Assembly: GCF_020181355.1 (NCBI RefSeq)
Contig: NZ_CP084004.1
Span: 1,488,001-1,552,000 of the forward strand
Origin: Collinsella aerofaciens
Lineage (GTDB): Bacteria > Actinomycetota > Coriobacteriia > Coriobacteriales > Coriobacteriaceae
DNA: 64,000 bases
Direction: 5' to 3'
Position numbers and translations under genes: made by a program. Positions 1,887 to 60,304 of the stretch are shown here, one piece after another (within the stretch, counting starts at the first letter, position 1; each line of letters starts with the position of its first letter). Under the pieces are notes generated by a model that saw nothing but the letters and a program-made list of their open reading frames with translations, did not search any database and had not been told where the DNA came from.

Positions 1887-3077
1887 GTGCAATATCGCGT
1901 TGACCCCAAAAGCGGCAACCGTATCTCGGCGTTGGGTCTGGGCTGCATGAGGTTTCCCGGTGCGCCGGGACGTCCGGATGCGAAGACAGCCGATGCCATC
2001 ATTTCCCGTGCGGTGGAGCAGGGGATTAATTATCTGGACACGGCCTATCTCTATCCCGGCAACGAGGCTTGCGTGGGCGCTTCGCTTGAACGCCTGGGCT
2101 TGCGCGACCAGGTTTTGCTCGCAACCAAGCTGCCGCATGCTTCGTGCAAATGCGCGGAGGATTTCGATCGGTTTTTCGACGAGCAGCTGCGCCGCCTGCA
2201 GACCGACCATATCGACTATTACCTTATGCACAACATCACCTCGCCTGCGCAGTGGGAGCGCGTGGTGGCGCTGGGCATCGAGGACTGGATCGCGCAGCAA
2301 AAGGCTGCAGGGCGTATTCGTCAGATAGGCTTTTCGTACCACGGCAGCGCGGCGGACTTCCTCACGATGCTCGATGCGTATGTGTGGGACTTTTGCCAGA
2401 TCCAGTACAACTACGCTGGAGAGCGATATCAGGCGGGAGCGGCGGGGCTCATGGCCGCCGCCGAGCGAGGTCTCGCGGTGTTTGTGATGGAGCCGCTTTT
2501 GGGCGGACGCTTGGCAGGCAAATTGCCTCCGCGGGCGCGCGCTGTTCTCGATGGTGCATGCGATCGGCATTTGCATACGCCTGCCGCTTGGGGGCTCTCG
2601 TGGGTGTGGAATCATCCCCAGGTGACCATGTTGCTTTCTGGTATGACCGATACCGCGCAAGTGGACGAGAATTCGTCACTGGCAGACCTCGCGTTGCCGA
2701 ATTCGATGACGGCCAACCAGCTCGACACGATTGCGCGCGTGTTGATGGAGTTTGAGAAATCGAACCGTGTGCCCTGCACGGGATGCGGCTACTGCATGCC
2801 ATGTCCCAAGGGTATTAACATTCCCGGCTGCTTTGCCGCTTACAACGCGAGCTACGCGCACAGCTGGTTTACGGGGCTGTCTCAATACTTTACGGCGAGC
2901 GCGGTGCGCACGAGCGAGCCCAAGCTGGTGAGCAATTGCGTCAAGTGCGGTAAATGCGCACGTCACTGCCCGCAGCACATCGATATTCCCGAGCGTCTCG
3001 ATGACGTGCGCCGACGTTTCCAGCCTGGCCCCGTAACGGCTGTGCTTAAAGCCTTCCGCACAACGCGCTCCTCATGA
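1887..3077 (+). CDS. Aldo/keto reductase with C-terminal ferredoxin domain
   Basis: 396 residues. The TIM-barrel half carries the aldo/keto reductase tetrad, read as D51, Y56, K81 and H115. The C-terminal part has two cysteine clusters (C297/C300/C303/C306 and C351/C354/C357/C361) of the 2x[4Fe-4S] ferredoxin type, each followed by Pro. This architecture is common in anaerobes; the substrate is not predictable. The longest reading frame starts at 1770, but only the GTG at 1887 has a ribosome-binding site (AAGGGAGGGG at 1875-1884), and the family's N-terminal strand begins there. The iron-sulfur domain implies electron exchange with ferredoxin or flavodoxin in addition to NAD(P)H. Confidence 0.85.
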   Translation: MQYRVDPKSGNRISALGLGCMRFPGAPGRPDAKTADAIISRAVEQGINYLDTAYLYPGNEACVGASLERLGLRDQVLLATKLPHASCKCAEDFDRFFDEQLRRLQTDHIDYYLMHNITSPAQWERVVALGIEDWIAQQKAAGRIRQIGFSYHGSAADFLTMLDAYVWDFCQIQYNYAGERYQAGAAGLMAAAERGLAVFVMEPLLGGRLAGKLPPRARAVLDGACDRHLHTPAAWGLSWVWNHPQVTMLLSGMTDTAQVDENSSLADLALPNSMTANQLDTIARVLMEFEKSNRVPCTGCGYCMPCPKGINIPGCFAAYNASYAHSWFTGLSQYFTASAVRTSEPKLVSNCVKCGKCARHCPQHIDIPERLDDVRRRFQPGPVTAVLKAFRTTRSS

Positions 3078-3090
3078 TCCTTTTATATCT

Positions 3091-3170
3091 TGTGATGGAA
3101 TAGTTCCTGTGATGGAATAGTTCCTGTTTACGGCAGAATAGGGCAATAGCAGGAACTATTTCGCCGCAAC
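3091..3170 (+). promoter_or_regulatory. Hairpin leader element, copy 1, with tandem 17-mer
   Basis: TGTGATGGAATAGTTCC occurs twice in tandem (3091-3107 and 3108-3124). Its AATAGTTCC part pairs with GGAACTATT at 3152-3160, and the flanking TTG..G/C..CAA also pair. The downstream arm is followed within 15 nt by the ribosome-binding site of the next gene. The same layout with different but still complementary stem bases occurs at 4289-4351. Confidence 0.5.
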
Positions 3171-3185
3171 TAATGGGAGACTATC

Positions 3186-4205
3186 GTGGGTGACCGAGGT
3201 TTACGTAATGATTCGCGTGAGGTTCGTTGGGGCATTTTGGGCGCCGGGCACATTTCTCATCGATTTGCATCGTCGCTCAAGAAGGTCGACGGGGCACGGC
3301 TGGTGGCTGCGGCCGGCCGCACTCCTGCACATGTCGAGGAATTTTGCCGAGCGTTTTCGATCGATGCTGCGCATGGCCATGTCTCGGTCGACGATAACGG
3401 CAATGCGGCTTATGACGCGCTGATTGCCGACCCCGATGTCGACGCAATCTACTTGGCTCTTCCGCATGGCATGCATACGCGTTGGGCCTGTCGCGCGCTG
3501 CGCGCCGGAAAGGCCGTGCTGTGCGAAAAGCCGGCCGTTTTGAGTGAGGAAGAGGCTCTCTCGATTGCCTCCACCTCTCGTGAGCGCGGCGTGCTGTTTA
3601 TGGAGGCGATGAAGAATCGGTTTTGCCCGATGCGCACTCGCGTGAAGGACTTGCTTGCGTCGGGTGAGCTTGGCCGTATTGTCTCGATTGAAAGCGTGCA
3701 AAAGCTCGATTACGGCGAACCTCCTTCGGGCTATCTGCTTGATTCGTTGCAGGGCGGCTGTCTATATGACATGGGCTGCTATGCGGTCGGTTGGTATGAG
3801 GATTTGCTCTCGGGCGCGTGCGAGGTTTCGTCCCGTGAAGTTCGCTGGCGTGACGTATCAGGCGGCCGCGTCGATTGGGCCGACGAGATCCATATGAGCG
3901 TCGGCGGTATACCCATTCATATGGCGTGCGACGGCAAAGCAACATATGAAAGCCGCTTAACGATTGCCTGTGAGCGGGGCTCGTTGGAAATCGAGCGTCT
4001 CCATCGCCCCGAGCGCGCTCATGTGAAGTATTCCGACGGTCGAACGCTAGAAATAAATGCCCCGTTTGAGATCGATGATTTCTACGGCGAAATCCAGCAT
4101 GCGACGCAGCTCATTCAGGCGGGGAAACTCGAGAGTCCCGTCATGCCCCTTGCCGCCACGCAGCGCTGTGCGCACATCATCGATGCAATCCGTCTAGCCC
4201 TCTAG
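3186..4205 (+). CDS. Gfo/Idh/MocA family oxidoreductase
   Basis: 339 residues, GTG start with GGGAGA 5 nt upstream. The N-terminal NAD(P)-binding fold has WGILGAGHIS (G19-S24 region), and the conserved E114-K115-P116 catalytic motif follows. The C-terminal half is the alpha/beta substrate-binding domain typical of glucose-fructose oxidoreductase, inositol dehydrogenase and dihydrodiol dehydrogenase relatives. It therefore oxidises or reduces a sugar or polyol, substrate unknown. It sits alone between two related hairpin leaders and shares leader type with endonuclease IV rather than with any sugar gene. Confidence 0.8.
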   Translation: MGDRGLRNDSREVRWGILGAGHISHRFASSLKKVDGARLVAAAGRTPAHVEEFCRAFSIDAAHGHVSVDDNGNAAYDALIADPDVDAIYLALPHGMHTRWACRALRAGKAVLCEKPAVLSEEEALSIASTSRERGVLFMEAMKNRFCPMRTRVKDLLASGELGRIVSIESVQKLDYGEPPSGYLLDSLQGGCLYDMGCYAVGWYEDLLSGACEVSSREVRWRDVSGGRVDWADEIHMSVGGIPIHMACDGKATYESRLTIACERGSLEIERLHRPERAHVKYSDGRTLEINAPFEIDDFYGEIQHATQLIQAGKLESPVMPLAATQRCAHIIDAIRLAL

Positions 4206-4288
4206 GACTTGGCGCTGACGCGTAGGGGATCATGACGCCGGCGCCCGTGGTGCCTGGCGGCCCACATCTCTGATGCCCCTTTTATAAC

Positions 4289-4351
4289 TTGCGGTGGAAT
4301 ACGGCCTGTTTGCGCCAAAATAAGGCACTAATAGACCGTATTTCACCGCAA
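4289..4351 (+). promoter_or_regulatory. Hairpin leader element, copy 2
   Basis: TTGCGGTGGAATACGG (4289-4304) pairs over 16 positions with CCGTATTTCACCGCAA (4336-4351), with one G-U. It is followed by AACTGATGAGGGGGAG, which holds the ribosome-binding site of endonuclease IV. Loop, flanks and placement match the copy at 3091-3170, but the central stem bases differ in a compensated way. Confidence 0.55.
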
Positions 4352-4371
4352 CTGATGAGGGGGAGCTGGAG

Positions 4372-5238
4372 ATGCTGACAATCGGATGTCATCTTTCGAC
4401 GACGAAGGGCTATCGGGCAATGGGGGAGACGGCGTTGTCCATTGGTGCCAATACCTTTGCGTTCTTTACGCGCAACCCGCGCGGTGGCAAGGCAAAAGAC
4501 CTTGACATGGATGACGTGGCGGCTCTGCGCGAGCTTATGGCGCAAAACGACTTTGGACCGCTGGTGGCGCATGCCCCGTATACCTATAACCCCTGCTCCG
4601 CTAAGGAGCGGGCGCGCGAGTTTGCCCTGGAGGCCATGGCCGAGGATCTGCAGCGCATGGAAGCACTGCCCGGCAACTACTACAATTTTCACCCCGGTGC
4701 GCATGTGGGACAGGGGGCAGACGCCGGCATTCAGATGATTGTCGACACGCTGTGCCAGGTGATGTTTGAGGGACAGCAGACGACGGTATTGCTCGAGACC
4801 ATGGCGGGCAAGGGCACCGAGGTGGGCCGTAGCTTTGAAGAACTGGCGTGCATTATCAAGGGCGTTGCCGCCAAGTGCCCAGAGCTGTCCGATAAGCTGG
4901 GCGTTTGTTTGGACACCTGCCATGTGAGCGATGCTGGCTACGACATCATCCATGATCTGGACGGCGTACTCGACGAATTCGACCGCGTGGTGGGTATCGA
5001 TCGTCTGCATGCCGTACACATCAACGATTCGAAGAACCCTTGTGGCGCCCATAAAGATCGTCACGAGTGCATCGGCAAGGGATACCTTGGCAGCGAGGAA
5101 TTTGGTGGCGGTATGCAGGTTATGCAGAATATTGTATCGAATGGTCGCTTGCGCGCATTGCCATTCATTTTGGAGACACCGAACGAACTTGCAGGTTATG
5201 CGGCTGAAATCAAACTGTTAAGGTCATTGCAGCAGTAA
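4372..5238 (+). CDS. nfo: Deoxyribonuclease IV (endonuclease IV)
   Basis: 288 residues, full length for the family. It cuts DNA 5' to abasic sites in base-excision repair using three metal ions, probably zinc. The TIM-barrel metal-ligand motifs are visible in order: [64 protein letters not shown] and a final ETP. The ATG has a GGGGGAGCTGGAG ribosome-binding site. It is preceded by the hairpin leader shared with the oxidoreductase upstream. Confidence 0.93.
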
Positions 5239-42067: not shown

Positions 42068-43375
42068 TCACTCGGCCGGGGCGTTGACCTTGTCGATGGT
42101 CCAGGCGGCTCCGAGGCCGCCGGTGGTGTTGCGGCGGATGCGCACGGTGACTTCGTGGCGCTCGCCTGCCTGCGTGTAACGCAGGGGGAAGCTTGCGCGG
42201 TTTCGCGCGGCCTCGATGGTACCGCGTTCGCGGGCGATCCAGTAGTACTCGCCGACGATGCCGAGCGTGTCGGCGCCGTAGGGGAGATAGGTCGACAACT
42301 GGTGTAGCAATGGGCCGGGGCAGAAGACTTCGGTTGCGAAATCGATGGGGAAGTCCTCGGGGATGGCGGGCGCTGCAGGTGCGGGGGCTGGGGCCGCTAC
42401 GGGTACCGAAGCCGGTGCCGGTGAGGGAATTTGGTCGCAAGCAGAGGCGGGCACGGATTCGATGACGGGTGCGGGCTCCGGCGTCGTTTTCGGCTTGATC
42501 GTGGAATCTGCGGGCTTCACGGTGACGGGCGCGTCTGCAGCTGCAGTTTCAACCTCAACCTGCGTCGCGTTCTCGTTCTCGACGCTCGACTTTGCGTCGA
42601 TGGGCGTGGATGCCATGGTGGTTATGCCGGCGTTGGCGTTCTCGGGGTCATAGACGACCGTGAGCGAGATGGCGGGCTGCGGCGTCTCGGGCTCCGGCGT
42701 CGACTCAGTAGCGCCTTGATCGGCGGGCTCGTCGGGCTGATCGTCCTCGGCCTCGTCGCCAAAGACATCGCTGTTTTGGAACGCAGACGTCTCGGGCTGG
42801 TCAGCGGCTTCTTCGGTTGTCGACTTGGGAGCCTCGTTGAGCTCGGCAGTGGCTTGCTGCTCGGATATGACTTCGGGATCGGTCGTGGCGGCGATTTCGG
42901 TTTCGGCTTCTGCCGTTACCTCAATAGCGACTTCGATCTCTGCCTCGGGCTCGGGCTCCGGAGCGACTTCGGCCATGGGCTCGGGCTCGGCGCGCTTAAC
43001 GTGCTTGGGGCGCACGGCCTTGAGGTCCTTCTCGCCGCGCTTTTTCTTTTTGTAGGACTGCTTGGCACCCTTGGCAGCCTTGGGCTTGTCCTCGCCCTTG
43101 GCAAGGGCGGCATCCCAGGCCTCGTTGGCGATGACCGTGGCATACAGGCGACCGCCCTTAAAGACGGTCAGCTTAATGCAGTCGTCGAGCTCCTCGAGCA
43201 GCTCGCGCGTGGACTCGAAGCCCAGGTCATAAGCGGCCATGTCACCAGCGGCGAGTGCCTCCTCGACCTGCGTCATAAACGTTTGCTTGCCGCATCCGAT
43301 TGCGTCGCGCAGCAGGCGATACAGATAGATGTGGTTGCCCAGCGAAAGTGTGGGCCTAACTATTGTCTTGCTCAT
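42068..43375 (-). CDS. Unknown protein with long Pro/Ala/Glu linker
   Basis: 435 residues in three parts. About 1-80 is a compact, probably winged-helix-like domain (HIYLYRLLRDAIGCGKQTFMTQ, GGRLYATVIANEAWDAALA). About 85-340 is a basic patch (KKKKRGEK) then a very acidic, low-complexity Pro/Glu/Ala/Thr linker. About 345-435 is a conserved-looking C-terminal domain (FCPGPLLHQLSTYLPYG...TVRIRRNTTGGLGAAWTIDKV). I do not recognise it. The architecture suggests two folded domains tethered by a flexible arm, perhaps nucleic-acid linked. ATG 43375 has GAGGAG. Confidence 0.6.
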   Translation of the reverse strand: MSKTIVRPTLSLGNHIYLYRLLRDAIGCGKQTFMTQVEEALAAGDMAAYDLGFESTRELLEELDDCIKLTVFKGGRLYATVIANEAWDAALAKGEDKPKAAKGAKQSYKKKKRGEKDLKAVRPKHVKRAEPEPMAEVAPEPEPEAEIEVAIEVTAEAETEIAATTDPEVISEQQATAELNEAPKSTTEEAADQPETSAFQNSDVFGDEAEDDQPDEPADQGATESTPEPETPQPAISLTVVYDPENANAGITTMASTPIDAKSSVENENATQVEVETAAADAPVTVKPADSTIKPKTTPEPAPVIESVPASACDQIPSPAPASVPVAAPAPAPAAPAIPEDFPIDFATEVFCPGPLLHQLSTYLPYGADTLGIVGEYYWIARERGTIEAARNRASFPLRYTQAGERHEVTVRIRRNTTGGLGAAWTIDKVNAPAE

Positions 43376-43446
43376 GGCAAATCTCCTCTTTACACACCAA
43401 AGCATCTTACCATCGCACGGGGCGTGCCACCTCGGCGCCCAAGGCA

Positions 43447-43479
43447 AACGGGCGCGACCGTTGCCGGTTCGCGCCCGTT
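43447..43479. terminator. Terminator after the Ser/Thr-tail gene
   Basis: 11-bp stem AACGGGCGCGA / TCGCGCCCGTT with TTT on the minus strand, downstream of the minus-strand gene at 43514. Confidence 0.7.
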
Positions 43480-43513
43480 ATATAGGTCGATTATCTATGA
43501 GAGGCAAACGTGC

Positions 43514-44467
43514 TTAGTTGCCCGATGCCGTGCCTTGGCTCGAGCTGTCAGATGCCGTGCCGGACGCGGTTCCGCTCGAGCTATTCGAGCTGTCGGTGTT
43601 GCCGTTGTCGGTAGATCCCGTGCCCGATGTATTGCCGCTCGTCTGGTCGCCCGTGCTCGGTTGAGAGCCGTCAGTCGTTTGGCTTGAGTCGGTTGTGCCG
43701 GATTGCGTACCGCTGTTGTTCACAGAGGAATCGGCGCCCTGCGACTGATCGGGGGTGTTCGAGGACGAGTCGGTGGATGCGGAGGTGCCCTGCGGGTCGT
43801 CCTGCTGGCTTTGCGATTGACCGGAGCTATCCGCGTCGTGCTCGGTCGTGCGCGACGAAAGGATTGGCTCGGGGCGCTCGCCCAGACCCTCACCGGCGGT
43901 GGTTATAAGGATGGCGCCGGTGCAGGCGATGACCGCGACGATGGCGATGGCGATCGAGAAGACGATGACCTTCTTTTGCGTCTGGCTGCGCTCTGCCGCG
44001 GCCTTGGCGCGCAGGCTGTTAGGGGCGACGCGCGCCGTGGTCGCACGCCCCGCAACCTGGCGCATCTCCTGCGTGGTCGCGGCGCCACCTAGGTGCTCCT
44101 CGGCATCAAACTCAACGGGCTTATAGGCGCCGGCGGGGTAGTCGACGTCGGCGTGCGTACCTTTGAGGGCTTTGGTGCTGGCAGAGATAAAGTGGCGGTA
44201 GACCTGCGAGGACACAACGGTGATGACCGAGCTCACGGCGGCGCCAATTACTGAACCCGCGATACCGATCTTGGAGGCAAGTGCAACGCTCGTGGCGGCA
44301 GCTGCGGCGCCGGCGATGATCTGGGGAATGGAAATGTCGTCAAACAGGCCCTTTTTGGGCGCGATGGCCATGGTCTGTCCGATGGAATGGTTCTCGTGCA
44401 CGCCGTTGTTGAGCGATGCCGGCGTCATGACGCGCGTGCGCGGCGCGTCGGTGTACTTGGTTGTCAT
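43514..44467 (-). CDS. Membrane protein with low-complexity Ser/Thr/Gly tail
   Basis: 317 residues. An N-terminal Ala/Gly-rich hydrophobic region (IAGAAAAATSVALASKIGIAGSV onward, about 45-80) could form a membrane hairpin; a clear single span is at about 165-190 (IVFSIAIAIVAVIACTGAIL). After it comes a roughly 110-residue tail of Ser, Thr, Asp, Gln and Gly with no fold, probably outside the cell and possibly glycosylated. ATG 44467 has GGGAGG. Family not recognised; a wall-spanning or adhesin-like role is possible. Confidence 0.6.
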   Translation of the reverse strand: MTTKYTDAPRTRVMTPASLNNGVHENHSIGQTMAIAPKKGLFDDISIPQIIAGAAAAATSVALASKIGIAGSVIGAAVSSVITVVSSQVYRHFISASTKALKGTHADVDYPAGAYKPVEFDAEEHLGGAATTQEMRQVAGRATTARVAPNSLRAKAAAERSQTQKKVIVFSIAIAIVAVIACTGAILITTAGEGLGERPEPILSSRTTEHDADSSGQSQSQQDDPQGTSASTDSSSNTPDQSQGADSSVNNSGTQSGTTDSSQTTDGSQPSTGDQTSGNTSGTGSTDNGNTDSSNSSSGTASGTASDSSSQGTASGN

Positions 44468-44642
44468 ACGGGGTCCTCCCGGTGTAAATCTGCTTCGTTT
44501 CGTGTAGCCATCAGGGTACCCACCAGATGTGAATCGTACGTGACATTTAACAGATACCATCAACTCATCAAGGGGGGCTTGCTGTCTTTGGTGCAATAGC
44601 TTGATGCTAAACTGGATTTACGATTGCGAGGTGGTTTACGTG

Positions 44643-44882
44643 ATGTACCCATATATGACATTCGAAGACGGTACCGAGGTCGTTCATTCTGACCTGATAA
44701 CAGATGGGGACATCGAAAAGGTTATCGTGCATTTTGAACGACCGACGGCAGAGGGCTTCGACTCCGCTCGTTGTGAGTTGCCTTCCTGTTCGTGGACTGA
44801 CTGGGAAGGGCATTTTACTCAGAGTGAAAAACGAGCTTTCGAAGAGTGTTTGAGCAAATCATTTAGATTAGTTCGAGTTTAG
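44643..44882 (+). CDS. Small acidic protein of unknown function
   Basis: 79 residues beginning MYPYMTFEDGTEVVHSDL, with GAGGTGG 8 nt before the ATG at 44643. It reads like a small cytosolic alpha/beta protein (EKVIVHFERPTAEGFDSARCELPS). I have a general impression of similar small proteins in gut anaerobes but cannot name a family. It opens an AT-rich island and precedes the RiPP-like operon by 79 nt; a role there is not shown. Confidence 0.55.
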   Translation: MYPYMTFEDGTEVVHSDLITDGDIEKVIVHFERPTAEGFDSARCELPSCSWTDWEGHFTQSEKRAFEECLSKSFRLVRV

Positions 44883-44915
44883 TTCGAATATAGAAGCCGA
44901 ATGAGATGACCTAAA

Positions 44916-44946
44916 GCGTATGCATTTTTAGTATTAGATGCGTATG
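44916..44946 (+). promoter_or_regulatory. Direct repeat upstream of the RiPP-like operon
   Basis: GCGTATG occurs at 44916-44922 and 44940-44946, 24 nt apart, between the small gene at 44643 and the DUF2087 gene. The spacing puts both on roughly the same DNA face, suggesting a regulator site. Confidence 0.35.
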
Positions 44947-44961
44947 AAATGGAGGATGTGA

Positions 44962-45243
44962 ATGGATGAGCTAATAGACTTTAAAAAACGATTTCTCAAG
45001 AATGGCGAGCTGGTTTCAATTCCAAAAAAGGAAAGCTATAAAAGAATCATGCTGCTATGGGCCGTCTCTTTCTTTGAATTAAATACAAGTTATACGGAGC
45101 TTCAGGTTAATCGTGTGTTGTCACAGCTCTATCCTGATTATGCCGTGTTGAGGCGGTACTTGGTTGATTATGGATTCCTATTAAGGGATGAACGAGGCCT
45201 GAAATACGAGGTTAATCGTGATGTTCACGGTATTGAGAGCTAG
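44962..45243 (+). CDS. DUF2087 protein
   Basis: 93 residues. Pattern FLKNGELVSIPKKESYKRIMLLWAVSFFELNTSYTELQVNRVL...YAVLRRYLVDYGFLLRDERGLKYEV fits DUF2087, a winged-helix-like domain often fused to or next to ArsR-type DNA-binding domains. It has GGAGG 6 nt before the ATG. Its end overlaps the MFS start by 23 nt, so it is the first gene of the operon with the exporter, radical SAM enzyme and peptide, and may regulate it. Confidence 0.75.
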   Translation: MDELIDFKKRFLKNGELVSIPKKESYKRIMLLWAVSFFELNTSYTELQVNRVLSQLYPDYAVLRRYLVDYGFLLRDERGLKYEVNRDVHGIES

Positions 45244-46405
45244 CCATCCGGTTCGGGTCCTATATATTGCTAGAGGGATAAGCGAAATAGGCAATTGGTG
45301 TGCGAATATTGCTTTGCCAATGCTGATTTACGAGGTAACTCACGATGTTTCTGCAACTGCTTTGATGGTCTGCTGCAGATTTGCCCCCTCTCTGTTTTCA
45401 GTTGCGCTCGCGCAGCTGCCTCAGAAGATGGGTATCGGGACACTGCGGGCCATGAGATTGGCAGACTTAATTCGCGCGGGATTATTCGTTTGCTATATTT
45501 TTGTTGATAGTAAATGGAGTATGTTTGCTATTACGTGCGCGGTATCGCTTTGCCGAACGGTTGAAATGCCCTGCTTTTACTCGTTGTTAAGAGCCAATAC
45601 GAATAGTATCAATCGCGACGTAATTAATAATTCGTTTGGGTTTCTGCAGAATTTGATGATGGTTCTGGGGCCAGTTGCCGGCGGTTTTGTTGTCGCTCAA
45701 TTTGGGGCGGAGGCTGTTCTTGCATTAGACGCGCTTTCTTTTGCCGCGTCGTTCTGGTTGCTGCGAGATGTTCCGTCGGTTATCGAGGTTAATGATAAAG
45801 AGGGGATAAGCAAAAATGAAAAAAACAGGACTGCATTTAGTGATCTTAGCGCGAAGCACTTGGCAATTGGTTTCCTATTAATCGATATTTCTAGTGGCGT
45901 GGCATTCGGCTCTCTGAATTCTCTTTTGCCAGCTATAGCGCAATTGCAATTTGACTCGTCATCGATACAATACGGATTCCTTCAGAGTAGTCTTACAATC
46001 GGACTGTTGTTCGGAAATACAATATATGGTCGTTTAATCAGTGGTTCCGATTGCGTTAAATCATATTGTTTTGTGACGTATCTTGCGCTCGGTGCGTATC
46101 TGGCGTTTGGCTATCGCTATGCGTCTGGGATATCGTTTATTTTCCTTTTTATCGTCGGTGCCGGAAACGCCATTCAAGATGTGCTTCTCATAACATCGCT
46201 GCAGGATTTGGCGAGAGACGGATCTGAATCGATAAGCCTGTTTTCAATTAGGGAGTCTTTGCAATCGGTTGCTGTTGTTATTTCAACACTCCTTGTTTCG
46301 CTGTTCACGAGCATCGCGATGTTCTCAATTCTCGTTACAGGACTTGGTGTATTTTCAATTATGATGGTAGTTGTGTTTCAATTGAATTATTTGCGAAAGA
46401 TGTGA
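45221..46405 (+). CDS. MFS exporter of the RiPP-like operon
   Basis: 394 residues with about 12 spans. LYIARGISEIGNWCANIALPMLIYEVTHDVSATALMV at the N-terminus is typical of the drug/macrolide-efflux-like MFS group (usual GxxxSxxGD replaced by GISEIGNW). A hydrophilic central loop (EVNDKEGISKNEKNRT) splits the halves. Position between the DUF2087 gene and the radical SAM enzyme suggests export of the modified peptide or self-protection. ATG 45221 overlaps the preceding gene; a GTG at 45218 is possible. Confidence 0.8.
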   Translation: MFTVLRASHPVRVLYIARGISEIGNWCANIALPMLIYEVTHDVSATALMVCCRFAPSLFSVALAQLPQKMGIGTLRAMRLADLIRAGLFVCYIFVDSKWSMFAITCAVSLCRTVEMPCFYSLLRANTNSINRDVINNSFGFLQNLMMVLGPVAGGFVVAQFGAEAVLALDALSFAASFWLLRDVPSVIEVNDKEGISKNEKNRTAFSDLSAKHLAIGFLLIDISSGVAFGSLNSLLPAIAQLQFDSSSIQYGFLQSSLTIGLLFGNTIYGRLISGSDCVKSYCFVTYLALGAYLAFGYRYASGISFIFLFIVGAGNAIQDVLLITSLQDLARDGSESISLFSIRESLQSVAVVISTLLVSLFTSIAMFSILVTGLGVFSIMMVVVFQLNYLRKM

Positions 46406-46412
46406 CGTTGAT

Positions 46413-48734
46413 ATGCCTAAAACGCTTTTAGTATTTCCCCCAGGATGGAGTCCAGTGGGGCCGTATCTTGCCTTGCCTGTTTTGAAGTCATATCTTCAAG
46501 AGGTTGAACAATACAAAGTTGACATTGTTGACTTAAACGTGGAATTTTACGATGACCTCCTATCTTTTAGACATGTCGAAGAGTGCTGTAAAAGGTATCG
46601 GGAATCAAAGGATTCGTTTAGTTCGAATGTTCAATTAACAATCGAGTTGATACAAAAGTCAGCACTTAATGTTGACGAAGCAAAAGATATTTTCAGATCA
46701 AAGAGATACTTTAATCTAAAAGAAAGACAATATGCTGAAAACATTTTTAGAAATGCACTCTATATCATAAATCACGTCTCATATGGAGTTAAATACACGT
46801 TCAACTCCATAGATCTGCCCTATGATTATTATTCGACACCAGAAATAATGAAATCGCTTGCGGATACCTTGCATAATCCGTTTATTTCCTTCTATGAAAC
46901 TGCCTTTCTTAAGCGTATTCAGAGGGAAAAAATCGAGTTTATTGGGATTTCGGTGAGCGGCTGTTTCCAATTGATTTCCGCAGTTACGTTAGCGAAACTG
47001 ATTAAAGAAGAATGTCCATCTGTTAAACACGTCTCATTGGGCGGCAATTACATTACTCGTTTAGCAGATGACTGCATGAAAGAATGGCATCCCTTTTTTG
47101 AATACATTGATTCGATAATGATGTATGACGGCGAAGAGCCGCTTGCACGTCTTCTTGAGGCTCTTGACTCTGGTGATGACAATCTCGACTGTGTTCCAAA
47201 CCTTTGCCATGCTAAAGGTGGAAAGATATATAAAAACCATCGGATTGAGCAAACATTTATCAACGATACAGTTCCCGATTTCGATGGCTTCGCCCTTTCT
47301 AAATACTTCATGCCTGAGTTAATATTGCCGGTTTATTCCTCTAGGCAGTGTTTTAATCATTGCGCCTTCTGCACCATTCCCGGTGCTACTGGTGGTTGTT
47401 ACCGAAAGATGCCCATATCGAGAGTATTTGAAATAATGTGTCGGTTAAATGAAAAATACGGCACGAGAGTTTTCTCTTTTGTGGATGAAACATTCGAAGG
47501 CAAAAGAATGGAGCAACTCGCGGATGAAATAAACGCATCGGGAAAAACGTTTTTCTGGCATGGAGAAACGAGGTTCTCTCCAACCCTAAGTACAGACGTT
47601 TTCAACAAGATATACCAAAGTGGATGTAGGCAGATTCAGTTTGGCCTCGAGTCATACAACCAAAGAGTTCTTGATCTAATGAAGAAGAACACGAGAGTTG
47701 ATTGGATTGATCGCAATATCCATGATTGTCTCAATGCGGGTATTCCTGTTCATCTATTCTTTATGATTGGCTTTCCGACCGAAACTAAAGAAGAGGCTCT
47801 GAACACCTTAGCTTATACAGAGAATGTTTTGAATTATTCAAAACAGGTATGTGGTGTTCCATATTCCACGAGAGGATTTACGAATTTTGGTCTCGTTATG
47901 GGGTCGGATGTTTGGAATCATCCCGATAAGTATGGTGTCTCTGTAATGCCGAAGTCCCAATATGAGGATTTGCGCCTCGAAGTGGATTATGTTTCAGGCA
48001 CTGGTTTAACTTTAAATGAAGCAAAATCCTTATCTGATGAGCATCATATTGATTTTTATATGCAAGAGGTCATAAACGGTAGCGACACAATTGACTTGCC
48101 CCAGCGGCTTCATATTTCAGAGGTGACCTGGATCCTAGATTCTATTCACGCTGTCAGGTATAAGGGACATTTGACCAAAGTAAAGCGACGGCTAACTAGT
48201 CTAAATCCAGCTGATCGAATCTGGCTGGATTCCAAGACCTCTGTCGTGCTCGTTGAGCCATTTGCCTACTTCTATAATTCTGAATACCATCATGTCTATG
48301 CTGTTTCCCAGTTGGTATACCTTAAGTTGGCCCGTTTATTGGAGGCTGATTGTAGCATTTCTCTTATCCTTGATCAGGGCGATCTCGAGCTGACAAGGGC
48401 GATAGAAGAACTGTTGCATTATGGATTGCTGAATACAAATATCGATGCCGATTATGTAATGCACGATAATGGTTTTCAATTGGTTAAAAGTTCGTTTGTG
48501 AAAGAAGTCGGACGCTCAAAAGAGGGGTTAAGAGTACTGCTGAGTTGTGCCACCCATAGAATGTGTGCGGTTAATGATTTTTCGTTCGCTTTGCTTTCGT
48601 TGTTTGAAAAGCCGATTACTAAGAACGAGGTGCGCGACATTTTGAAAAAAGAGGGACTATCGGCAAACGAGGAGCAATTAAACAAGTTGGTTGATAATTG
48701 CATGAAAGCAGATATACTACAATTGATTAGATAG
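46413..48734 (+). CDS. B12-binding radical SAM enzyme, RiPP-maturase-like
   Basis: 773 residues. About 1-240 is a cobalamin-binding-type domain (TLLVFPPGWSPVGPYLALPVLKSYL, GISVSGCFQLISAVTLAKLI, HVSLGGNYI). The radical SAM cluster ligands are C313-x3-C317-x2-C320, with later barrel strands (FSFVDETFEGKRM, QIQFGLESYNQRVLDLMKK, FFMIGFPTETKEEA). About 600-700 and 703-773 look like two PqqD-like winged-helix regions, the kind that bind leader peptides. It would methylate or cross-link a peptide. It lies 7 nt after the MFS gene, and a 36-codon gene follows after 13 nt. Low GC points to acquisition by transfer. Confidence 0.82.
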   Translation: MPKTLLVFPPGWSPVGPYLALPVLKSYLQEVEQYKVDIVDLNVEFYDDLLSFRHVEECCKRYRESKDSFSSNVQLTIELIQKSALNVDEAKDIFRSKRYFNLKERQYAENIFRNALYIINHVSYGVKYTFNSIDLPYDYYSTPEIMKSLADTLHNPFISFYETAFLKRIQREKIEFIGISVSGCFQLISAVTLAKLIKEECPSVKHVSLGGNYITRLADDCMKEWHPFFEYIDSIMMYDGEEPLARLLEALDSGDDNLDCVPNLCHAKGGKIYKNHRIEQTFINDTVPDFDGFALSKYFMPELILPVYSSRQCFNHCAFCTIPGATGGCYRKMPISRVFEIMCRLNEKYGTRVFSFVDETFEGKRMEQLADEINASGKTFFWHGETRFSPTLSTDVFNKIYQSGCRQIQFGLESYNQRVLDLMKKNTRVDWIDRNIHDCLNAGIPVHLFFMIGFPTETKEEALNTLAYTENVLNYSKQVCGVPYSTRGFTNFGLVMGSDVWNHPDKYGVSVMPKSQYEDLRLEVDYVSGTGLTLNEAKSLSDEHHIDFYMQEVINGSDTIDLPQRLHISEVTWILDSIHAVRYKGHLTKVKRRLTSLNPADRIWLDSKTSVVLVEPFAYFYNSEYHHVYAVSQLVYLKLARLLEADCSISLILDQGDLELTRAIEELLHYGLLNTNIDADYVMHDNGFQLVKSSFVKEVGRSKEGLRVLLSCATHRMCAVNDFSFALLSLFEKPITKNEVRDILKKEGLSANEEQLNKLVDNCMKADILQLIR

Positions 48735-48747
48735 AGGAGGTTTCTGC

Positions 48748-48858
48748 ATGGACGTTATTAACAAAGATCTCTTGGAGCAACTGAAAGAGTTTCAGGAAGA
48801 GGGCGTCGTGGTAGAAGTGTTCGACTTTGAGGACTACATGGATAAATTCTGCCATTAG
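48748..48858 (+). CDS. 36-residue putative RiPP precursor peptide
   Basis: Too short for routine gene finding. ATG preceded by GAGGAGG at a good distance, 13 nt after the radical SAM stop and 24 nt before a strong terminator. It is very acidic (11 Asp/Glu, 3 Lys). Residues 5-18 form a likely amphipathic helix (NKDLLEQLKEFQEE), a usual leader feature; then a hydrophobic strand GVVVEVF, and an aromatic, acidic end with Phe25, Phe27, Tyr30, Phe34, Cys35 and His36. The terminal D-K-F-C-H would be the likely core. No Gly-Gly cleavage site is seen. Confidence 0.65.
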   Translation: MDVINKDLLEQLKEFQEEGVVVEVFDFEDYMDKFCH

Positions 48859-48882
48859 TTTCGGAATTTACTCGCCTCGCTT

Positions 48883-48916
48883 AAAGGAGAAGTCGATTAT
48901 CGATTTCTCCTTTTTT
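48883..48916 (+). terminator. Terminator of the RiPP-like operon
   Basis: 14-bp stem AAAGGAGAAGTCGA / TCGATTTCTCCTTT (one G-U), loop TTA, followed by TTT. It directly follows the small peptide gene. Confidence 0.85.
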
Positions 48917-49046
48917 AATTAAAGATTTTTTTGAAATACATGCTCTTAGCACAGGTTGGCCTCTCAGTAAACTGGGAGGTTGCTTTGGCTAGTTAGAGGT
49001 ATGTGAACGTTCGTTAGACTGAATCTCAGGGTAGAAGGGGCCTCCA

Positions 49047-51047
49047 GTGTCCAGATCAACAAGGCAATGCTGCGTTTCGGCTAATAAGAACGATGGCTTT
49101 TTGCGTGTGGCGGCGGCGTCGCCGCAGATTCGCGTTGCCGATGTCGAGGGCAATGCCGAGGTTGCGTTGGCGGCTGTTCGCGAGGCTGCCGAGCGCGGCG
49201 TTCGTGCTCTGGTGCTGCCCGAGCTTAACTTGTGCGGCTATACCGCGGCCGATCTGTTCCATAACCGCACATTACTGCATGCCTGCGAGGCTGCTTTGGT
49301 GCATATCCTCGATGTGACTCGTGAGCTGCCGATTGTCTTTACCATCGGTCTTCCCGTTGCAGTTGCCGAGAATATCTACAACTGCGCCGCCGTGTGCTGC
49401 GCGGGTGAGCTTTTGGGCCTCACGGCCAAGAAGTATCTGCCCAACTATGGCGAGTTCTACGAGCGCCGCTGGTTTGCTCCGGCGCCCACAGATCCCGTGT
49501 GGGTTGAATTTGCCGGTCAGGGTCCGGTTCCGCTGGGTTCGGGGCTTGTCTACCGCTGCTGTGATGAGGGTGCTGAGGACCTGGTGCTGGGCGTCGAGGT
49601 CTGTGAGGACCTGTGGGTACCTGCGCCGCCCTCGACCGAGATGGCGCTTGCCGGTGCCACGGTGATTCTCAACCCCTCCGCTTCCGACGAGATCATCGGT
49701 AAGGCAGATTACCGACGTAGCCTCATCTCCAATCAGTGTGCGCGCCTCTACTGTGCCTATGCCTATGCGGACGCGAGCGAGGGCGAGTCCACGACCGATA
49801 TGGTCTTTGCGGGCGAGAACCTCGTCTACGAAAACGGCTCTAAGCTGGCGGCGACGAAGCTCCTTACCTGCGATATGGCGGTTGCCGATGTTGACCTCGA
49901 CCGTCTGGTTGCCGAGCGCCGTCGCTCGACGACGTGGACGCGCGCGGACGATGCGCCGGAGGCCACAACCGTTGAATTTTCGTTTGAGGGCGTGCTGGCC
50001 AAAGAGCCTGTCCTGCGCGATGCACTCGACATCGACCGTGTCTTCCCCCGTGCTCCCTTTGTGCCGGCCGACCACGGCGACTTGGCAGAGCGCTGCGAGA
50101 CGATCCTCGATCTGCAGACTGCGGGCCTCAAGACCCGCCTTGCCCACACGGGTACCAAGGCTGCGGTCATCGGCCTTTCGGGCGGCCTGGACTCCACGCT
50201 GGCGCTGCTTGTGACCGTGCGTGCCTTCGATGCGCTGGGGCTGCCGCGCACCGGTATCACAGCCGTGTCCATGCCTGGCTTTGGCACGACGCATCGCACC
50301 AAGTCCAATGCCGAGTCGCTTGCCCGCGACCTGGGTGTGAGCTTCCGCGAGGTTTCGATCCACGCGGCTGTGGAGCAGCACTTCAAGGACATTGAGCACG
50401 ATTCGGCCGTGCAGGACGTGACCTACGAGAACAGCCAGGCCCGCGAGCGCACGCAGATTCTGATGGATCTGGCCAACCAGGCTGGCGGTTTTGTCATCGG
50501 TACGGGCGATCTGTCGGAGCTGGCGCTCGGCTGGGCTACCTATAACGGAGACCACATGAGCATGTATGCCGTCAATGCGAGCGTGCCCAAGACGCTTGTG
50601 CGCCATCTGGTGCGCTATGCGGCTGATGTCTTTGGCGGGCGTATTGCCGAGGTCTTGCTCGATATCCTCGATACGCCGGTATCTCCCGAGCTTCTGCCGC
50701 CCACGGGCGACGGCGAGATTGCGCAGAAGACTGAGGATTTGGTGGGCCCGTACGAGTTGCACGACTACTTCCTCTACTACCTGCTGCGTTTTGGCTTTGA
50801 GCCGGGCAAGATCTACCGCATGGCGCTCAAGAGCTTCGAGGGCGTCTACGACGCCAAGACCGTCCACACGTGGCTACGTACGTTCTACCGTCGCTTCTTT
50901 GCCCAGCAGTTTAAGCGCAGCTGCCTGCCCGATGGTCCCAAGGTGGGTTCGGTGACGCTCAGCCCGCGCGGCGATTGGCGTATGCCGAGTGACGCTAGCT
51001 CGCGTCTGTGGCTTGCGCAGATCGACGCGCTCAATCCAGTTGACTAA
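49047..51047 (+). CDS. nadE: Glutamine-dependent NAD+ synthetase
   Basis: 666 residues. N-terminal nitrilase-type glutaminase triad: Glu in LPELNLCGYTAADLF, Lys in KKYLPNYGEFYERRWF, Cys in GVEVCEDLWVP. C-terminal synthetase: ATP loop GLSGGLDSTLALLV, GTGDLSELALGWATYNGDHMSMY. It makes NAD+ from deamido-NAD+ in the cytosol. GTG start at 49047 with AAGGGG. Before it, ACCTCCCAGTTTACTGAGAGG-type pairing at about 48960-48985 could shape the leader. Confidence 0.93.
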   Translation: MSRSTRQCCVSANKNDGFLRVAAASPQIRVADVEGNAEVALAAVREAAERGVRALVLPELNLCGYTAADLFHNRTLLHACEAALVHILDVTRELPIVFTIGLPVAVAENIYNCAAVCCAGELLGLTAKKYLPNYGEFYERRWFAPAPTDPVWVEFAGQGPVPLGSGLVYRCCDEGAEDLVLGVEVCEDLWVPAPPSTEMALAGATVILNPSASDEIIGKADYRRSLISNQCARLYCAYAYADASEGESTTDMVFAGENLVYENGSKLAATKLLTCDMAVADVDLDRLVAERRRSTTWTRADDAPEATTVEFSFEGVLAKEPVLRDALDIDRVFPRAPFVPADHGDLAERCETILDLQTAGLKTRLAHTGTKAAVIGLSGGLDSTLALLVTVRAFDALGLPRTGITAVSMPGFGTTHRTKSNAESLARDLGVSFREVSIHAAVEQHFKDIEHDSAVQDVTYENSQARERTQILMDLANQAGGFVIGTGDLSELALGWATYNGDHMSMYAVNASVPKTLVRHLVRYAADVFGGRIAEVLLDILDTPVSPELLPPTGDGEIAQKTEDLVGPYELHDYFLYYLLRFGFEPGKIYRMALKSFEGVYDAKTVHTWLRTFYRRFFAQQFKRSCLPDGPKVGSVTLSPRGDWRMPSDASSRLWLAQIDALNPVD

Positions 51048-59927: not shown

Positions 59928-59997
59928 GTCCCGTAAACCTCGCTATCCAGACGGCGCCATCTGCGCATCGAATCCGCATAGCGTGGACCCAATGTCC

Positions 59998-60155
59998 GGA
60001 TAGCGCTCCCGCATTGCTGCAGACAGTCCTGTGGGTGTTTCCCACAGGCCCACCAGGTTGTTCGTGCCCGAAAACCCAGTTCGGCGGGTTTCGCCTCCCC
60101 ACGGGGTCAAAGCCTGCCGGCTCGCCCGCGGCTCTTCGTGCCCGCGCCTCTATCA
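59998..60155 (-). promoter_or_regulatory. Lysine riboswitch upstream of lysA-dapA
   Basis: On the minus strand the conserved L-box order is visible: GATAGAGGCGCG, AAGAGC, then GGGGAGGCGAAACCCGCCGA, GGGCCTGTGGG..CCCACAGG and GGGAGCGCTATC. GATAG and CTATC close P1. Beyond it, CTATCCGGAC can instead pair with GTCTGGATAG (about 59944-59953), next to the GAGG before lysA, and ACGCTAT (near 59980) can also pair with ATAGCG. This suggests translational control by ribosome-binding-site masking. Confidence 0.85.
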
Positions 60156-60304
60156 AGTGGTAAAGACCCTATCACGTTGCACTTTACCAAACAAGAGTAT
60201 TCGTATATAACGTTTAAAAAATGCAGGGATATGCTGGAAACATGTGCGCCACAATCCTGTATCACAATAAGTTGCAACAGATGTGCCTCACGAAGGGATT
60301 CTCT
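60156..60304. promoter_or_regulatory. Divergent promoter region, lysine operon and M20 gene
   Basis: An inverted repeat TGGTAAAG (60158-60165) / CTTTACCA (60182-60189) with a 16-nt centre lies at the minus-strand promoter of the riboswitch transcript, where TTGTTT and TAGGGT could serve as -35 and -10. The rest is AT-rich leader of the plus-strand gene, ending GAAGGGATTCTCT before its ATG. Confidence 0.4.

What the first reader, a model, noticed from the sequence alone, without database searches (positions are those of the whole stretch)
44962..48916. Candidate new RiPP pathway: DUF2087 + MFS + B12 radical SAM + 36-residue peptide
Seen: four closely packed genes in an AT-rich island closed by one strong terminator, with overlaps or short gaps. 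Known: RiPP operons pair a radical SAM maturase, a transporter and a short precursor. Inference: the 36-residue product is the substrate. The combination of a cobalamin-binding radical SAM enzyme with an MFS exporter and DUF2087 protein matches no RiPP class I can name.
Basis: partly seen in the sequence, partly recalled or inferred. Interest (0 to 1): 0.88.

Follow-up and report, generated by a model that had tools for sequence, protein, structure and literature searches.

The report
B12 radical enzyme peptide-tailoring operon
A four-gene island in a gut Collinsella-type bacterium encodes a probably vitamin-B12-dependent radical enzyme, a tiny peptide it very probably modifies, an exporter and a regulator; the same kinds of genes recur, reshuffled, in unrelated bacteria, which makes this a credible small new family of modified-peptide pathways rather than a chance gene cluster.

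Summary
In detail: DUF2087, MFS, B12-type radical SAM and a 36-codon ORF with a strong Shine-Dalgarno, closed by a 14-pair hairpin, in a 41.9% G+C insert (44572-49091; rest of window 59.3%) that is missing from 12 of 20 sister loci. The peptide is real. A profile-similar ORF directly follows the enzyme in 12 of 13 close relatives with DNA held there (6 Collinsella, Olsenella, 4 Lacrimispora, G1352); the thirteenth (G1310, wrecked enzyme) has an ORF by position only. Two Lacrimispora loci were found by the peptide profile alone. Each of the four lineages also carries DUF2087 and MFS genes. The enzyme's C-terminus matches a PqqD (RRE, leader-binding) profile; shuffled and HTH controls do not. 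The combination has precedent: bottromycin clusters pair a DUF2087 regulator, an MFS exporter and B12 radical SAM methyltransferases, and ApyD is an RRE-bearing B12-rSAM that beta-methylates a penultimate Tyr. Here the B12-rSAM is the only maturase in the island, and no library searched knows the peptide. Best reading: a new minimal B12-rSAM RiPP family, probably C-methylating near the peptide's C-terminus; chemistry, product and activity are untested. Unexpectedly, the enzyme is damaged in 8 of 17 loci.

The parts
44572..49091 (.). inserted island; about 123 bp stand in its place in sister genomes
   Evidence: of 20 sister loci 12 align up to 44571 and resume at 49092, 7 carry the island, 1 (G158) has something else there
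44962..45243 (+). DUF2087 gene (93 aa), probable cluster regulator
   Evidence: PF09860 72 bits; relatives carry a LuxR-type HTH in [Clostridium] aerotolerans and an ArsR-type HTH in G1352
45218..46405 (+). MFS transporter (395 aa), probable exporter and/or immunity
   Evidence: PF07690; Olsenella counterpart 30% identity, E=1.7e-37, itself just under the Pfam cut-off (32.9 of 33.4 bits); Lacrimispora MFS not detectably orthologous, E=0.03
46413..48734 (+). B12-type radical SAM enzyme (773 aa), proposed peptide maturase
   Evidence: CxxxCxxC at 313/317/320
48483..48725 (+). PqqD/RRE-like stretch of the enzyme (residues about 691-771)
   Evidence: hhalign to a PqqD profile: score 37.7-40.7, probability 94-95%, best of 40 sliding windows; 40 column-shuffled PqqD profiles max 11.5; HTH_5 11.0, DUF2087 10.8
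48748..48858 (+). 36-aa proposed precursor peptide, C-terminus ...FEDYMDKFCH
48883..48913 (+). hairpin terminator
   Evidence: 14 pairs; inverted repeat I5
44601..44882 (+). 93-aa ORF inside the island, upstream of DUF2087; no family; probably not part of the pathway
   Evidence: of 7 other Collinsella copies compared, nonsense codon in 3 and not in the stretch held in 1; homologue beside a DUF4160 gene in G158

Best explanation
It is a compact RiPP biosynthesis operon. Step 1 (inferred): the DUF2087 protein tunes its expression. Step 2 (inferred): the N-terminal part of the 33-39-residue acidic peptide (leader, LLExLKE... in most) is bound by the PqqD-like (RRE) stretch at the enzyme's C-terminus (the domain is shown by profile comparison only). 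Step 3 (inferred): the CxxxCxxC cluster cleaves SAM, and methylcobalamin delivers a methyl group to an unactivated carbon near the peptide's C-terminus. The feature shared by all six distinct C-terminal ends is an aromatic residue, Tyr or Phe, preceded by Lys or Gln, second or third from the end (DKF-CH, VKY-CN, MKY-AT, MKY-AN, TQY-V, and TKY-A of G1310, which is assigned by position only), so the beta-carbon of that aromatic is my first choice of site, as ApyD does to a penultimate Tyr. Step 4 (inferred): a host protease frees the C-terminal fragment and the MFS protein exports it. The product is most likely a short modified peptide used against, or to signal to, neighbours. Shown here: recurring gene set, conserved peptide with low dN/dS, RRE-like profile match, low divergence that points to recent horizontal spread. 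Confidence is for 'the peptide is the substrate of the enzyme'; for C-methylation as the reaction about 0.45, and for the aromatic beta-carbon as the site about 0.3.
For: Profile-similar peptide directly downstream of the enzyme in 12 of 13 close loci where the enzyme's 3' end and what follows are held: 6 Collinsella, Olsenella, Lacrimispora G395, G401, G724, G1199, G1352. The peptide profile found G724 and G1199 without any use of the enzyme; the enzyme lies next door. G401 was chosen for a fragment of the enzyme on another contig (L049), and the profile then led to the contig with the rest of the enzyme beside the peptide. The profile finds nothing at E below 0.7 in 7 genomes that hold only distant or decayed enzymes (L036, L037, L038, L040, L042, L051, L052). 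In 391 Clostridia the enzyme passed E 1e-40 only in two genomes, both with the peptide. Peptide dN/dS 0.09-0.12 between L. algidixylanolytica and two relatives (dS 0.68-0.74), 0.19 for a close pair (only 33 codons). Enzyme + peptide + DUF2087 + MFS in Collinsella, Olsenella, Lacrimispora and G1352, in three orders. RRE-like C-terminus with controls. NCBIfam's nearest families are RiPP C-methyltransferase TIGR03975 and PhpK, both below cut-off. Precedents: PMC7113386, PMC11117315, PMC11285071, passages of each.
Against: No modified peptide has been seen. TIGR03975 scores 120 bits against a cut-off of 282, so the enzyme is not a member of that family. The Pfam B12-binding model is below its cut-off and Pfam finds no RRE; no structure could be predicted. 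No protease lies in the island. Tyr30 is not conserved in G1352 or G1310, and the G1310 ORF scores nothing with the profile. The nearest outside relative (Acidobacteriota L036, 31%) has no such downstream ORF. In G401 the expected start codon of the peptide reads ATA. The Collinsella copies are too alike to test selection on the peptide there (0-1 change each, one of them an amino-acid change). The enzyme is damaged in 8 of 17 loci, so it is often dispensable.
Confidence: 0.8

Rival explanations
1. Same pathway, different reaction: the B12-rSAM makes a cross-link rather than a methylation, for example between Tyr30 and the aromatic four residues on, or with Lys33.
For: PbsB, a B12-rSAM, cross-links two ortho-Tyr side chains in a RiPP, and also works on a YTY variant (PMC12257519, passages). 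Collinsella, Olsenella and Lacrimispora peptides have D-Y-x-x-K-[YF].
Against: The first Tyr is absent in G1352 (TCSNSTQYV) and in G1310, so a Tyr-aromatic link cannot be general. No partner oxygenase was found in the island.
Confidence: 0.18
2. The enzyme builds or modifies a small molecule that MFS exports; the 36-mer is a helper, regulator or scaffold and not itself the product.
For: B12-rSAM enzymes also act on small molecules (recalled); PhpK-type P-methyltransferase is the second-best (window) or best (L035, L102) NCBIfam match. No leader protease in the island. A peptide can serve as a scaffold (3-thiaglutamate; start of the abstract of PMC9016710 seen in the listing).
Against: RRE-like C-terminal stretch, expected for leader binding; the C-terminus of the G1352 peptide differs while its position and leader pattern are kept; no other biosynthetic gene in the island.
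Confidence: 0.15
3. The product is a peptide signal sensed by the DUF2087 protein, not an antimicrobial.
For: DUF2087 with an HTH domain in two lineages; a response regulator gene of LytTR type follows the MFS gene in Lacrimispora L107.
Against: In bottromycin the DUF2087 protein BtmL only modulates precursor expression (PMC7113386, passages); the Collinsella DUF2087 protein shows no DNA-binding domain in Pfam, and the Olsenella one is equally short (92 aa; not scanned with Pfam); frequent loss of the enzyme also fits antagonism.
Confidence: 0.25
4. The 36-codon ORF is a chance frame next to an orphan enzyme.
For: Short ORFs are common: 80 ORFs of at least 30 codons overlap 42500-51000.
Against: Profile E-values of 5e-16 to 3.5e-17 in genomes not used to build it, beside the enzyme each time; rank 1 of 193 and 1 of 171 ORFs; low dN/dS.
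Confidence: 0.02

Closest known systems
Bottromycin clusters (btm/bot/bmb)
   Same: DUF2087 regulator (BtmL), MFS exporter (BtmA/BotT), class B (B12) radical SAM C-methyltransferases and a precursor peptide gene in one cluster (PMC7113386, passages; PMC11285071, passages). G1352's regulator has an ArsR-type HTH + DUF2087, the layout that paper proposes for BtmL.
   Different: One B12-rSAM instead of three. The island holds no further gene with a biosynthetic Pfam family. The bottromycin core is N-terminal with a C-terminal follower (PMC11285071); here the variable part is C-terminal. Enzyme relatedness to BotRMT1-3 was not tested.
ApyD (aminopyruvatide B12-rSAM)
   Same: B12-rSAM carrying its own RRE, acting near the C-terminal end (beta-methyl on the penultimate Tyr; PMC11117315, passages); 84.6 bits to NF050148.
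   Different: Far below the ApyD cut-off of 750 bits; no MNIO, P450 or second methyltransferase in the island; different precursor.
TIGR03975 RiPP maturation radical SAM C-methyltransferase
   Same: Best NCBIfam match of the window enzyme, residues 6-519.
   Different: 120.1 bits against a cut-off of 281.85; the window enzyme has a further C-terminal part that holds the RRE-like stretch.
PbsB (biphenomycin-type B12-rSAM cross-linkase)
   Same: B12-rSAM acting on aromatic residues of a RiPP (PMC12257519, passages).
   Different: PbsB works after an MNIO, an arginase and a hydroxylase; none is in the island. Sequence not compared.

Membership tests
RiPP pathway (in general) | ribosomally made precursor encoded beside the maturase | tested here: met
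   12 of 13 close loci by sequence, 1 by position only; dN/dS 0.09-0.19. Translation itself not shown
RiPP pathway (in general) | leader recognised by the maturase (RRE or equivalent) | tested here: inconclusive
   PqqD-like profile match at residues 691-771 with negative controls; Pfam finds none; structure prediction switched off
RiPP pathway (in general) | conserved leader, varying core | tested here: inconclusive
   G1352 keeps the leader pattern and EVFD but has a different C-terminus; few distinct peptides known, and the Olsenella leader is itself divergent
RiPP pathway (in general) | post-translational modification of the peptide | not testable with these tools
   needs co-expression and mass spectrometry
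TIGR03975 RiPP C-methyltransferase | NCBIfam cut-off 281.85 bits | tested here: not met
   120.1 bits; L033, L035, L102, L036 score 94.6-115.6
ApyD (NF050148) | cut-off 750 bits | tested here: not met
   84.6 bits
PhpK P-methyltransferase (TIGR04479) | cut-off 600 bits | tested here: not met
   107.4 bits
B12-dependent (class B) radical SAM enzymes | radical SAM CxxxCxxC with an N-terminal cobalamin-binding domain | tested here: inconclusive
   CxxxCxxC invariant in four aligned enzymes; PF02310 19.8 bits, below cut-off 32.1; several NCBIfam matches are named B12-binding families
Bottromycin-type clusters | DUF2087 + MFS + class B rSAM beside a short precursor | tested here: met
Bottromycin-type clusters | additional cyclisation enzymes (YcaO; recalled) and N-terminal core | tested here: not met
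   island 44572-49091 holds only the four genes and one 93-aa ORF without Pfam family; variable part is C-terminal. The rest of the genome was not searched for YcaO
DUF2087 (PF09860) | cut-off 22.4 bits | tested here: met
   72 bits

The most novel reading that the evidence does not exclude
A RiPP class in which one B12-dependent radical SAM enzyme with a built-in RRE-like domain is the sole maturase, writing a C-methyl mark near the C-terminus of a 33-39-residue precursor; it moves between Actinomycetota and Bacillota as an antagonism trait whose enzyme is repeatedly switched off at its 5' end while exporter and regulator are kept, as in immune non-producers.
Probability: 0.3. Interest if true: 0.75.

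Novelty: new variant of a known kind. Interest (0 to 1): 0.6.

Why it matters
B12 radical SAM enzymes put methyl groups on carbons that ordinary chemistry cannot reach, but in the RiPP cases whose passages I saw (bottromycin, aminopyruvatides, biphenomycin-type) they work among several other enzymes. A four-gene system with a 36-residue substrate would be a simple case in which to ask how such an enzyme finds its peptide and picks its carbon. It also points to an unread peptide product in gut bacteria, and its patchy decay gives a natural experiment on what the product costs and who benefits.

Tried and rejected
Viral contigs: two scans with the enzyme found no relative, so no sign of phage carriage there. 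Plasmids: 100 records match, none over 80% of the query; the 20 rows listed are at 28% identity or less. Three of these neighbourhoods were fetched: no DUF2087 or MFS gene is annotated beside the enzyme; small ORFs were not sought there and the gene tables are incomplete.

More distant B12-rSAMs (14 loci, about 24-36% identity) were looked at and set aside. No peptide of this kind was noticed in the small-ORF lists, and the peptide profile gave nothing at E below 0.7 in the 6 of these genomes that were searched with it (L036, L037, L038, L040, L042, L051). L036 has the C-terminal extension but no downstream ORF and instead a second B12-rSAM. L050 (a 49-residue match at a contig end, same genome as the distant L044) was left out of the 17 loci.

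Weak peptide-profile hits were dropped: G779 (E=5e-4, inside a 485-codon frame) and 7 hits at E 0.7-2.1 in four genomes (G395, G398, G401, G403). Defence-system library: no hit for the four genes; one marginal hit (E=6e-4) for the Lacrimispora regulator. Rfam at gathering thresholds: only a lysine riboswitch, unrelated. The upstream repeat (residues about 616-675) against PqqD is weak (score 16.0, probability 5%; shuffled max 12.3), so tandem RREs are not claimed.

Papers (listings; only open-licence papers are held): Collinsella + RiPP + radical SAM gave 1 paper and Lacrimispora + radical SAM + peptide 1 paper, neither on this by title. Wider queries listed only part of what they found (25 of 67; 20 of 815; 12 of 745; 12 of 21); no listed title or abstract start names this system. 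DUF2087 occurs in 5 held papers, one of them on a RiPP. One query found no paper. PMC9062424 (passages) concerns another radical SAM family and was not used.
Full report
WHAT IS THERE. Domain calls are firm for DUF2087, MFS and radical SAM; the cobalamin domain is weak in Pfam (19.8 bits, cut-off 32.1), but several NCBIfam matches are named B12-binding families. The host is an unnamed 2.28-Mb genome; same-genus carriers appear as Collinsella (mostly C. aerofaciens), so it is most likely a Collinsella (inference from matching contig lengths).

ISLAND. G+C is 0.419 in 44572-49091 and 0.593 elsewhere. A left-flank search found a match in 41 of 43 same-genus genomes. Of the 20 best loci other than our own, 7 carry the island, 12 run from 44571 through about 123 bp to 49092, that is the empty site, and one (G158) has a different insert; the remaining genomes were not judged. 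Between the window and three carriers, enzyme dS is 0.02-0.03 while the neighbouring NAD synthetase has dS 0.22-0.34 (per-bin divergence). I read this as recent spread of the island by recombination; constraint is less likely because synonymous sites are affected.

THE PEPTIDE IS REAL. In a search of 395 genomes of the order, 9 have the enzyme at more than 40% identity: 8 in the window's genus including our own (98-100%), and one Olsenella (51% over the best segment). The Olsenella copy is followed by a 39-codon ORF ending EVLDHEDYLVKYCN, against EVFDFEDYMDKFCH in the window. [Clostridium] aerotolerans has a 46% enzyme followed by MDKQLLEMLKELEEKEIIAESLENQDYVMKYAT. A profile of these three found copies in G724 and G1199 with no use of the enzyme, and in G401 (L. 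algidixylanolytica, E=4.8e-16), a genome chosen because the enzyme scan had met a fragment of the enzyme at the end of another contig (L049). In all three the enzyme lies just upstream. In 7 genomes with only distant or decayed enzymes the profile gave nothing at E below 0.7. G1352, found with the enzyme, has MSKEILKQLQEEALTKEVTAEVFDTCSNSTQYV behind a strong Shine-Dalgarno and a TTG start: the frame is best of 170 ORFs with a four-sequence profile (E=8e-4, next 0.55). So 12 of 13 close loci with the enzyme's 3' end and downstream DNA have it. The thirteenth, G1310, where the enzyme is wrecked, has a 33-codon Shine-Dalgarno-led ORF in the right place that the profile does not score. Two Collinsella carriers (G150, G172) cannot be judged because contigs end inside the enzyme. 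In G401 the expected start codon reads ATA, with an in-frame ATG six codons upstream. Against L. algidixylanolytica, two Lacrimispora copies have peptide dS 0.68-0.74 and dN 0.06-0.08 (ratio 0.09-0.12); the close pair has 0.19; these are 33 codons with few changes. The 3' flank is 45% identical ungapped. Within Collinsella variation is too low to test: 6 copies, 0-1 change each, one of them an amino-acid change.

GENE SET. Enzyme, peptide, DUF2087 and MFS occur together in Collinsella (DUF2087-MFS-enzyme-peptide), Olsenella (DUF2087 divergent; enzyme-peptide-MFS), Lacrimispora (enzyme-peptide-DUF2087-MFS) and G1352 (same order). Pfam was run on the window, L035 and G1352 genes and on the Olsenella MFS, which scores 32.9 bits against a cut-off of 33.4 but matches the window's MFS at E=1.7e-37; the Olsenella DUF2087 gene matches the window's at E=1.2e-23; the other Lacrimispora copies were recognised by likeness to L035. 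DUF2087 is fused to a LuxR-type HTH in [Clostridium] aerotolerans and to an ArsR-type HTH in G1352. Lacrimispora's MFS is not detectably orthologous to the window's (E=0.03), so the function is kept rather than the gene. The enzyme is rare at the thresholds used: 2 of 391 Clostridia, 3 of 338 Bacillota, 2 of 82 in the class of G1352, 1 of 3 in that of G1310, peptide in 4 of 25 of the aerotolerans genus; these samples overlap and two of the hits (G1310, G1559) are remains.

RRE. The last 180 residues have no Pfam family. A PqqD profile built from 18 stop-free stretches (of 20 taken from the 30 matches) aligned best with residues 691-771 (hhalign score 40.7, probability 95%) among 40 sliding windows; windows before residue 599 scored at most 14.8; 40 column-shuffled PqqD profiles gave at most 11.5. 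An ArsR-type HTH profile (22 sequences) scored 11.0 and DUF2087 10.8. An upstream repeat is too weak to claim.

WHAT IT WORKS LIKE. Bottromycin clusters contain a DUF2087 regulator (BtmL, which raises precursor expression), an MFS exporter and class B radical SAM methyltransferases, one of which methylates Phe (PMC7113386 and PMC11285071, passages). ApyD is an RRE-containing B12-rSAM that beta-methylates the penultimate Tyr of its precursor (PMC11117315, passages). PbsB, another B12-rSAM, instead cross-links aromatics (PMC12257519, passages). In our six distinct C-terminal ends the shared feature is [KQ]-[YF]-[CAV]. I therefore predict a C-methyl group near the C-terminus, first choice the aromatic beta-carbon; the Tyr four residues earlier is missing in G1352 and G1310, which speaks against a general Tyr-aromatic link. 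All of this is inference.

MEMBERSHIP. The enzyme fails the cut-offs of TIGR03975 (120 of 282 bits), PhpK (107 of 600) and ApyD (85 of 750), and the four relatives scanned do too. It works like these but is not filed under them. PDB sequence search with the enzyme profile gives one distant relative, an apramycin radical SAM enzyme (6fd2, E=1.6e-7). Pfam, NCBIfam and PADLOC do not know the peptide (one chance-level NCBIfam match at E=0.04).

DECAY, NOT EXPLAINED. Of 17 close loci with the enzyme or its remains, 8 are damaged: G152 (start codon changed to ATA, the mildest), G153 (nonsense, codon 11), G154 (2-nt insertion, about codon 16), G177 (nonsense, codon 29); G724 (60-residue in-frame deletion); G1310 (IS66 element inside, Pfam E=1e-102, and further loss); G1559 (only about the first 117 residues); Enterococcus PF1-24 (fragments of MFS and enzyme). 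Of the other 9, four (G150, G157, G172, G401) are cut by contig ends and were only partly seen. In the four Collinsella mutants MFS, DUF2087 and peptide frames are intact, as expected for immune non-producers; against this, G150 has a frameshifted MFS gene with the visible part of the enzyme intact, and G172 an altered MFS start. All four Collinsella lesions fall in the first 29 of 773 codons, which I cannot explain; those in homopolymers (G154 enzyme, G150 MFS) could be sequencing errors.

VERDICT. A real, conserved, rare four-gene system; very probably a RiPP pathway with a B12-rSAM as sole maturase in the island; new as a family, with clear functional precedents. Chemistry and product are open and easy to test.

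Noticed in passing
L106 (G158:C21:7500-15000), 2229-5220: At the same chromosomal site a sister genome carries a different candidate RiPP cluster: a radical SAM protein (best NCBIfam match the SPASM ryptide maturase, 158 of 600 bits), a 45-codon Shine-Dalgarno-led ORF and a protein with weak ABC-type ATPase matches; the site may be a hot spot for such clusters.
   Followed up: partly
window 44601-44882: 93-aa ORF inside the island without family; its homologue in G158 lies beside a DUF4160 gene, so it may be a toxin-antitoxin remnant; of 7 other carriers compared, nonsense codon in 3 and not in the stretch held in 1.
   Followed up: partly
Collinsella carriers, first 29 codons of the enzyme: Four different lesions in four genomes, all at the 5' end of a 773-codon gene; unexplained.
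   Followed up: partly
L036, 5671-10279: Acidobacteriota contig with two consecutive B12-type radical SAM genes and a 96-codon ORF upstream; possibly another peptide pathway.
   Followed up: partly
L040, L041, L043, L045, L047: Five distant B12-type radical SAM genes (four on Gastranaerophilales contigs, L040 unclassified) are each followed by a 106-115-codon ORF sharing LIGTNIN; function unknown.
   Followed up: no
L052, 7636-12325: Beside the decayed enzyme in Enterococcus sp. PF1-24 lie another radical SAM gene, a methyltransferase-like gene, a transporter-like gene and an 84-codon ORF.
   Followed up: no
window 59993-60160 (-): Lysine riboswitch, 75.6 bits.
   Followed up: no
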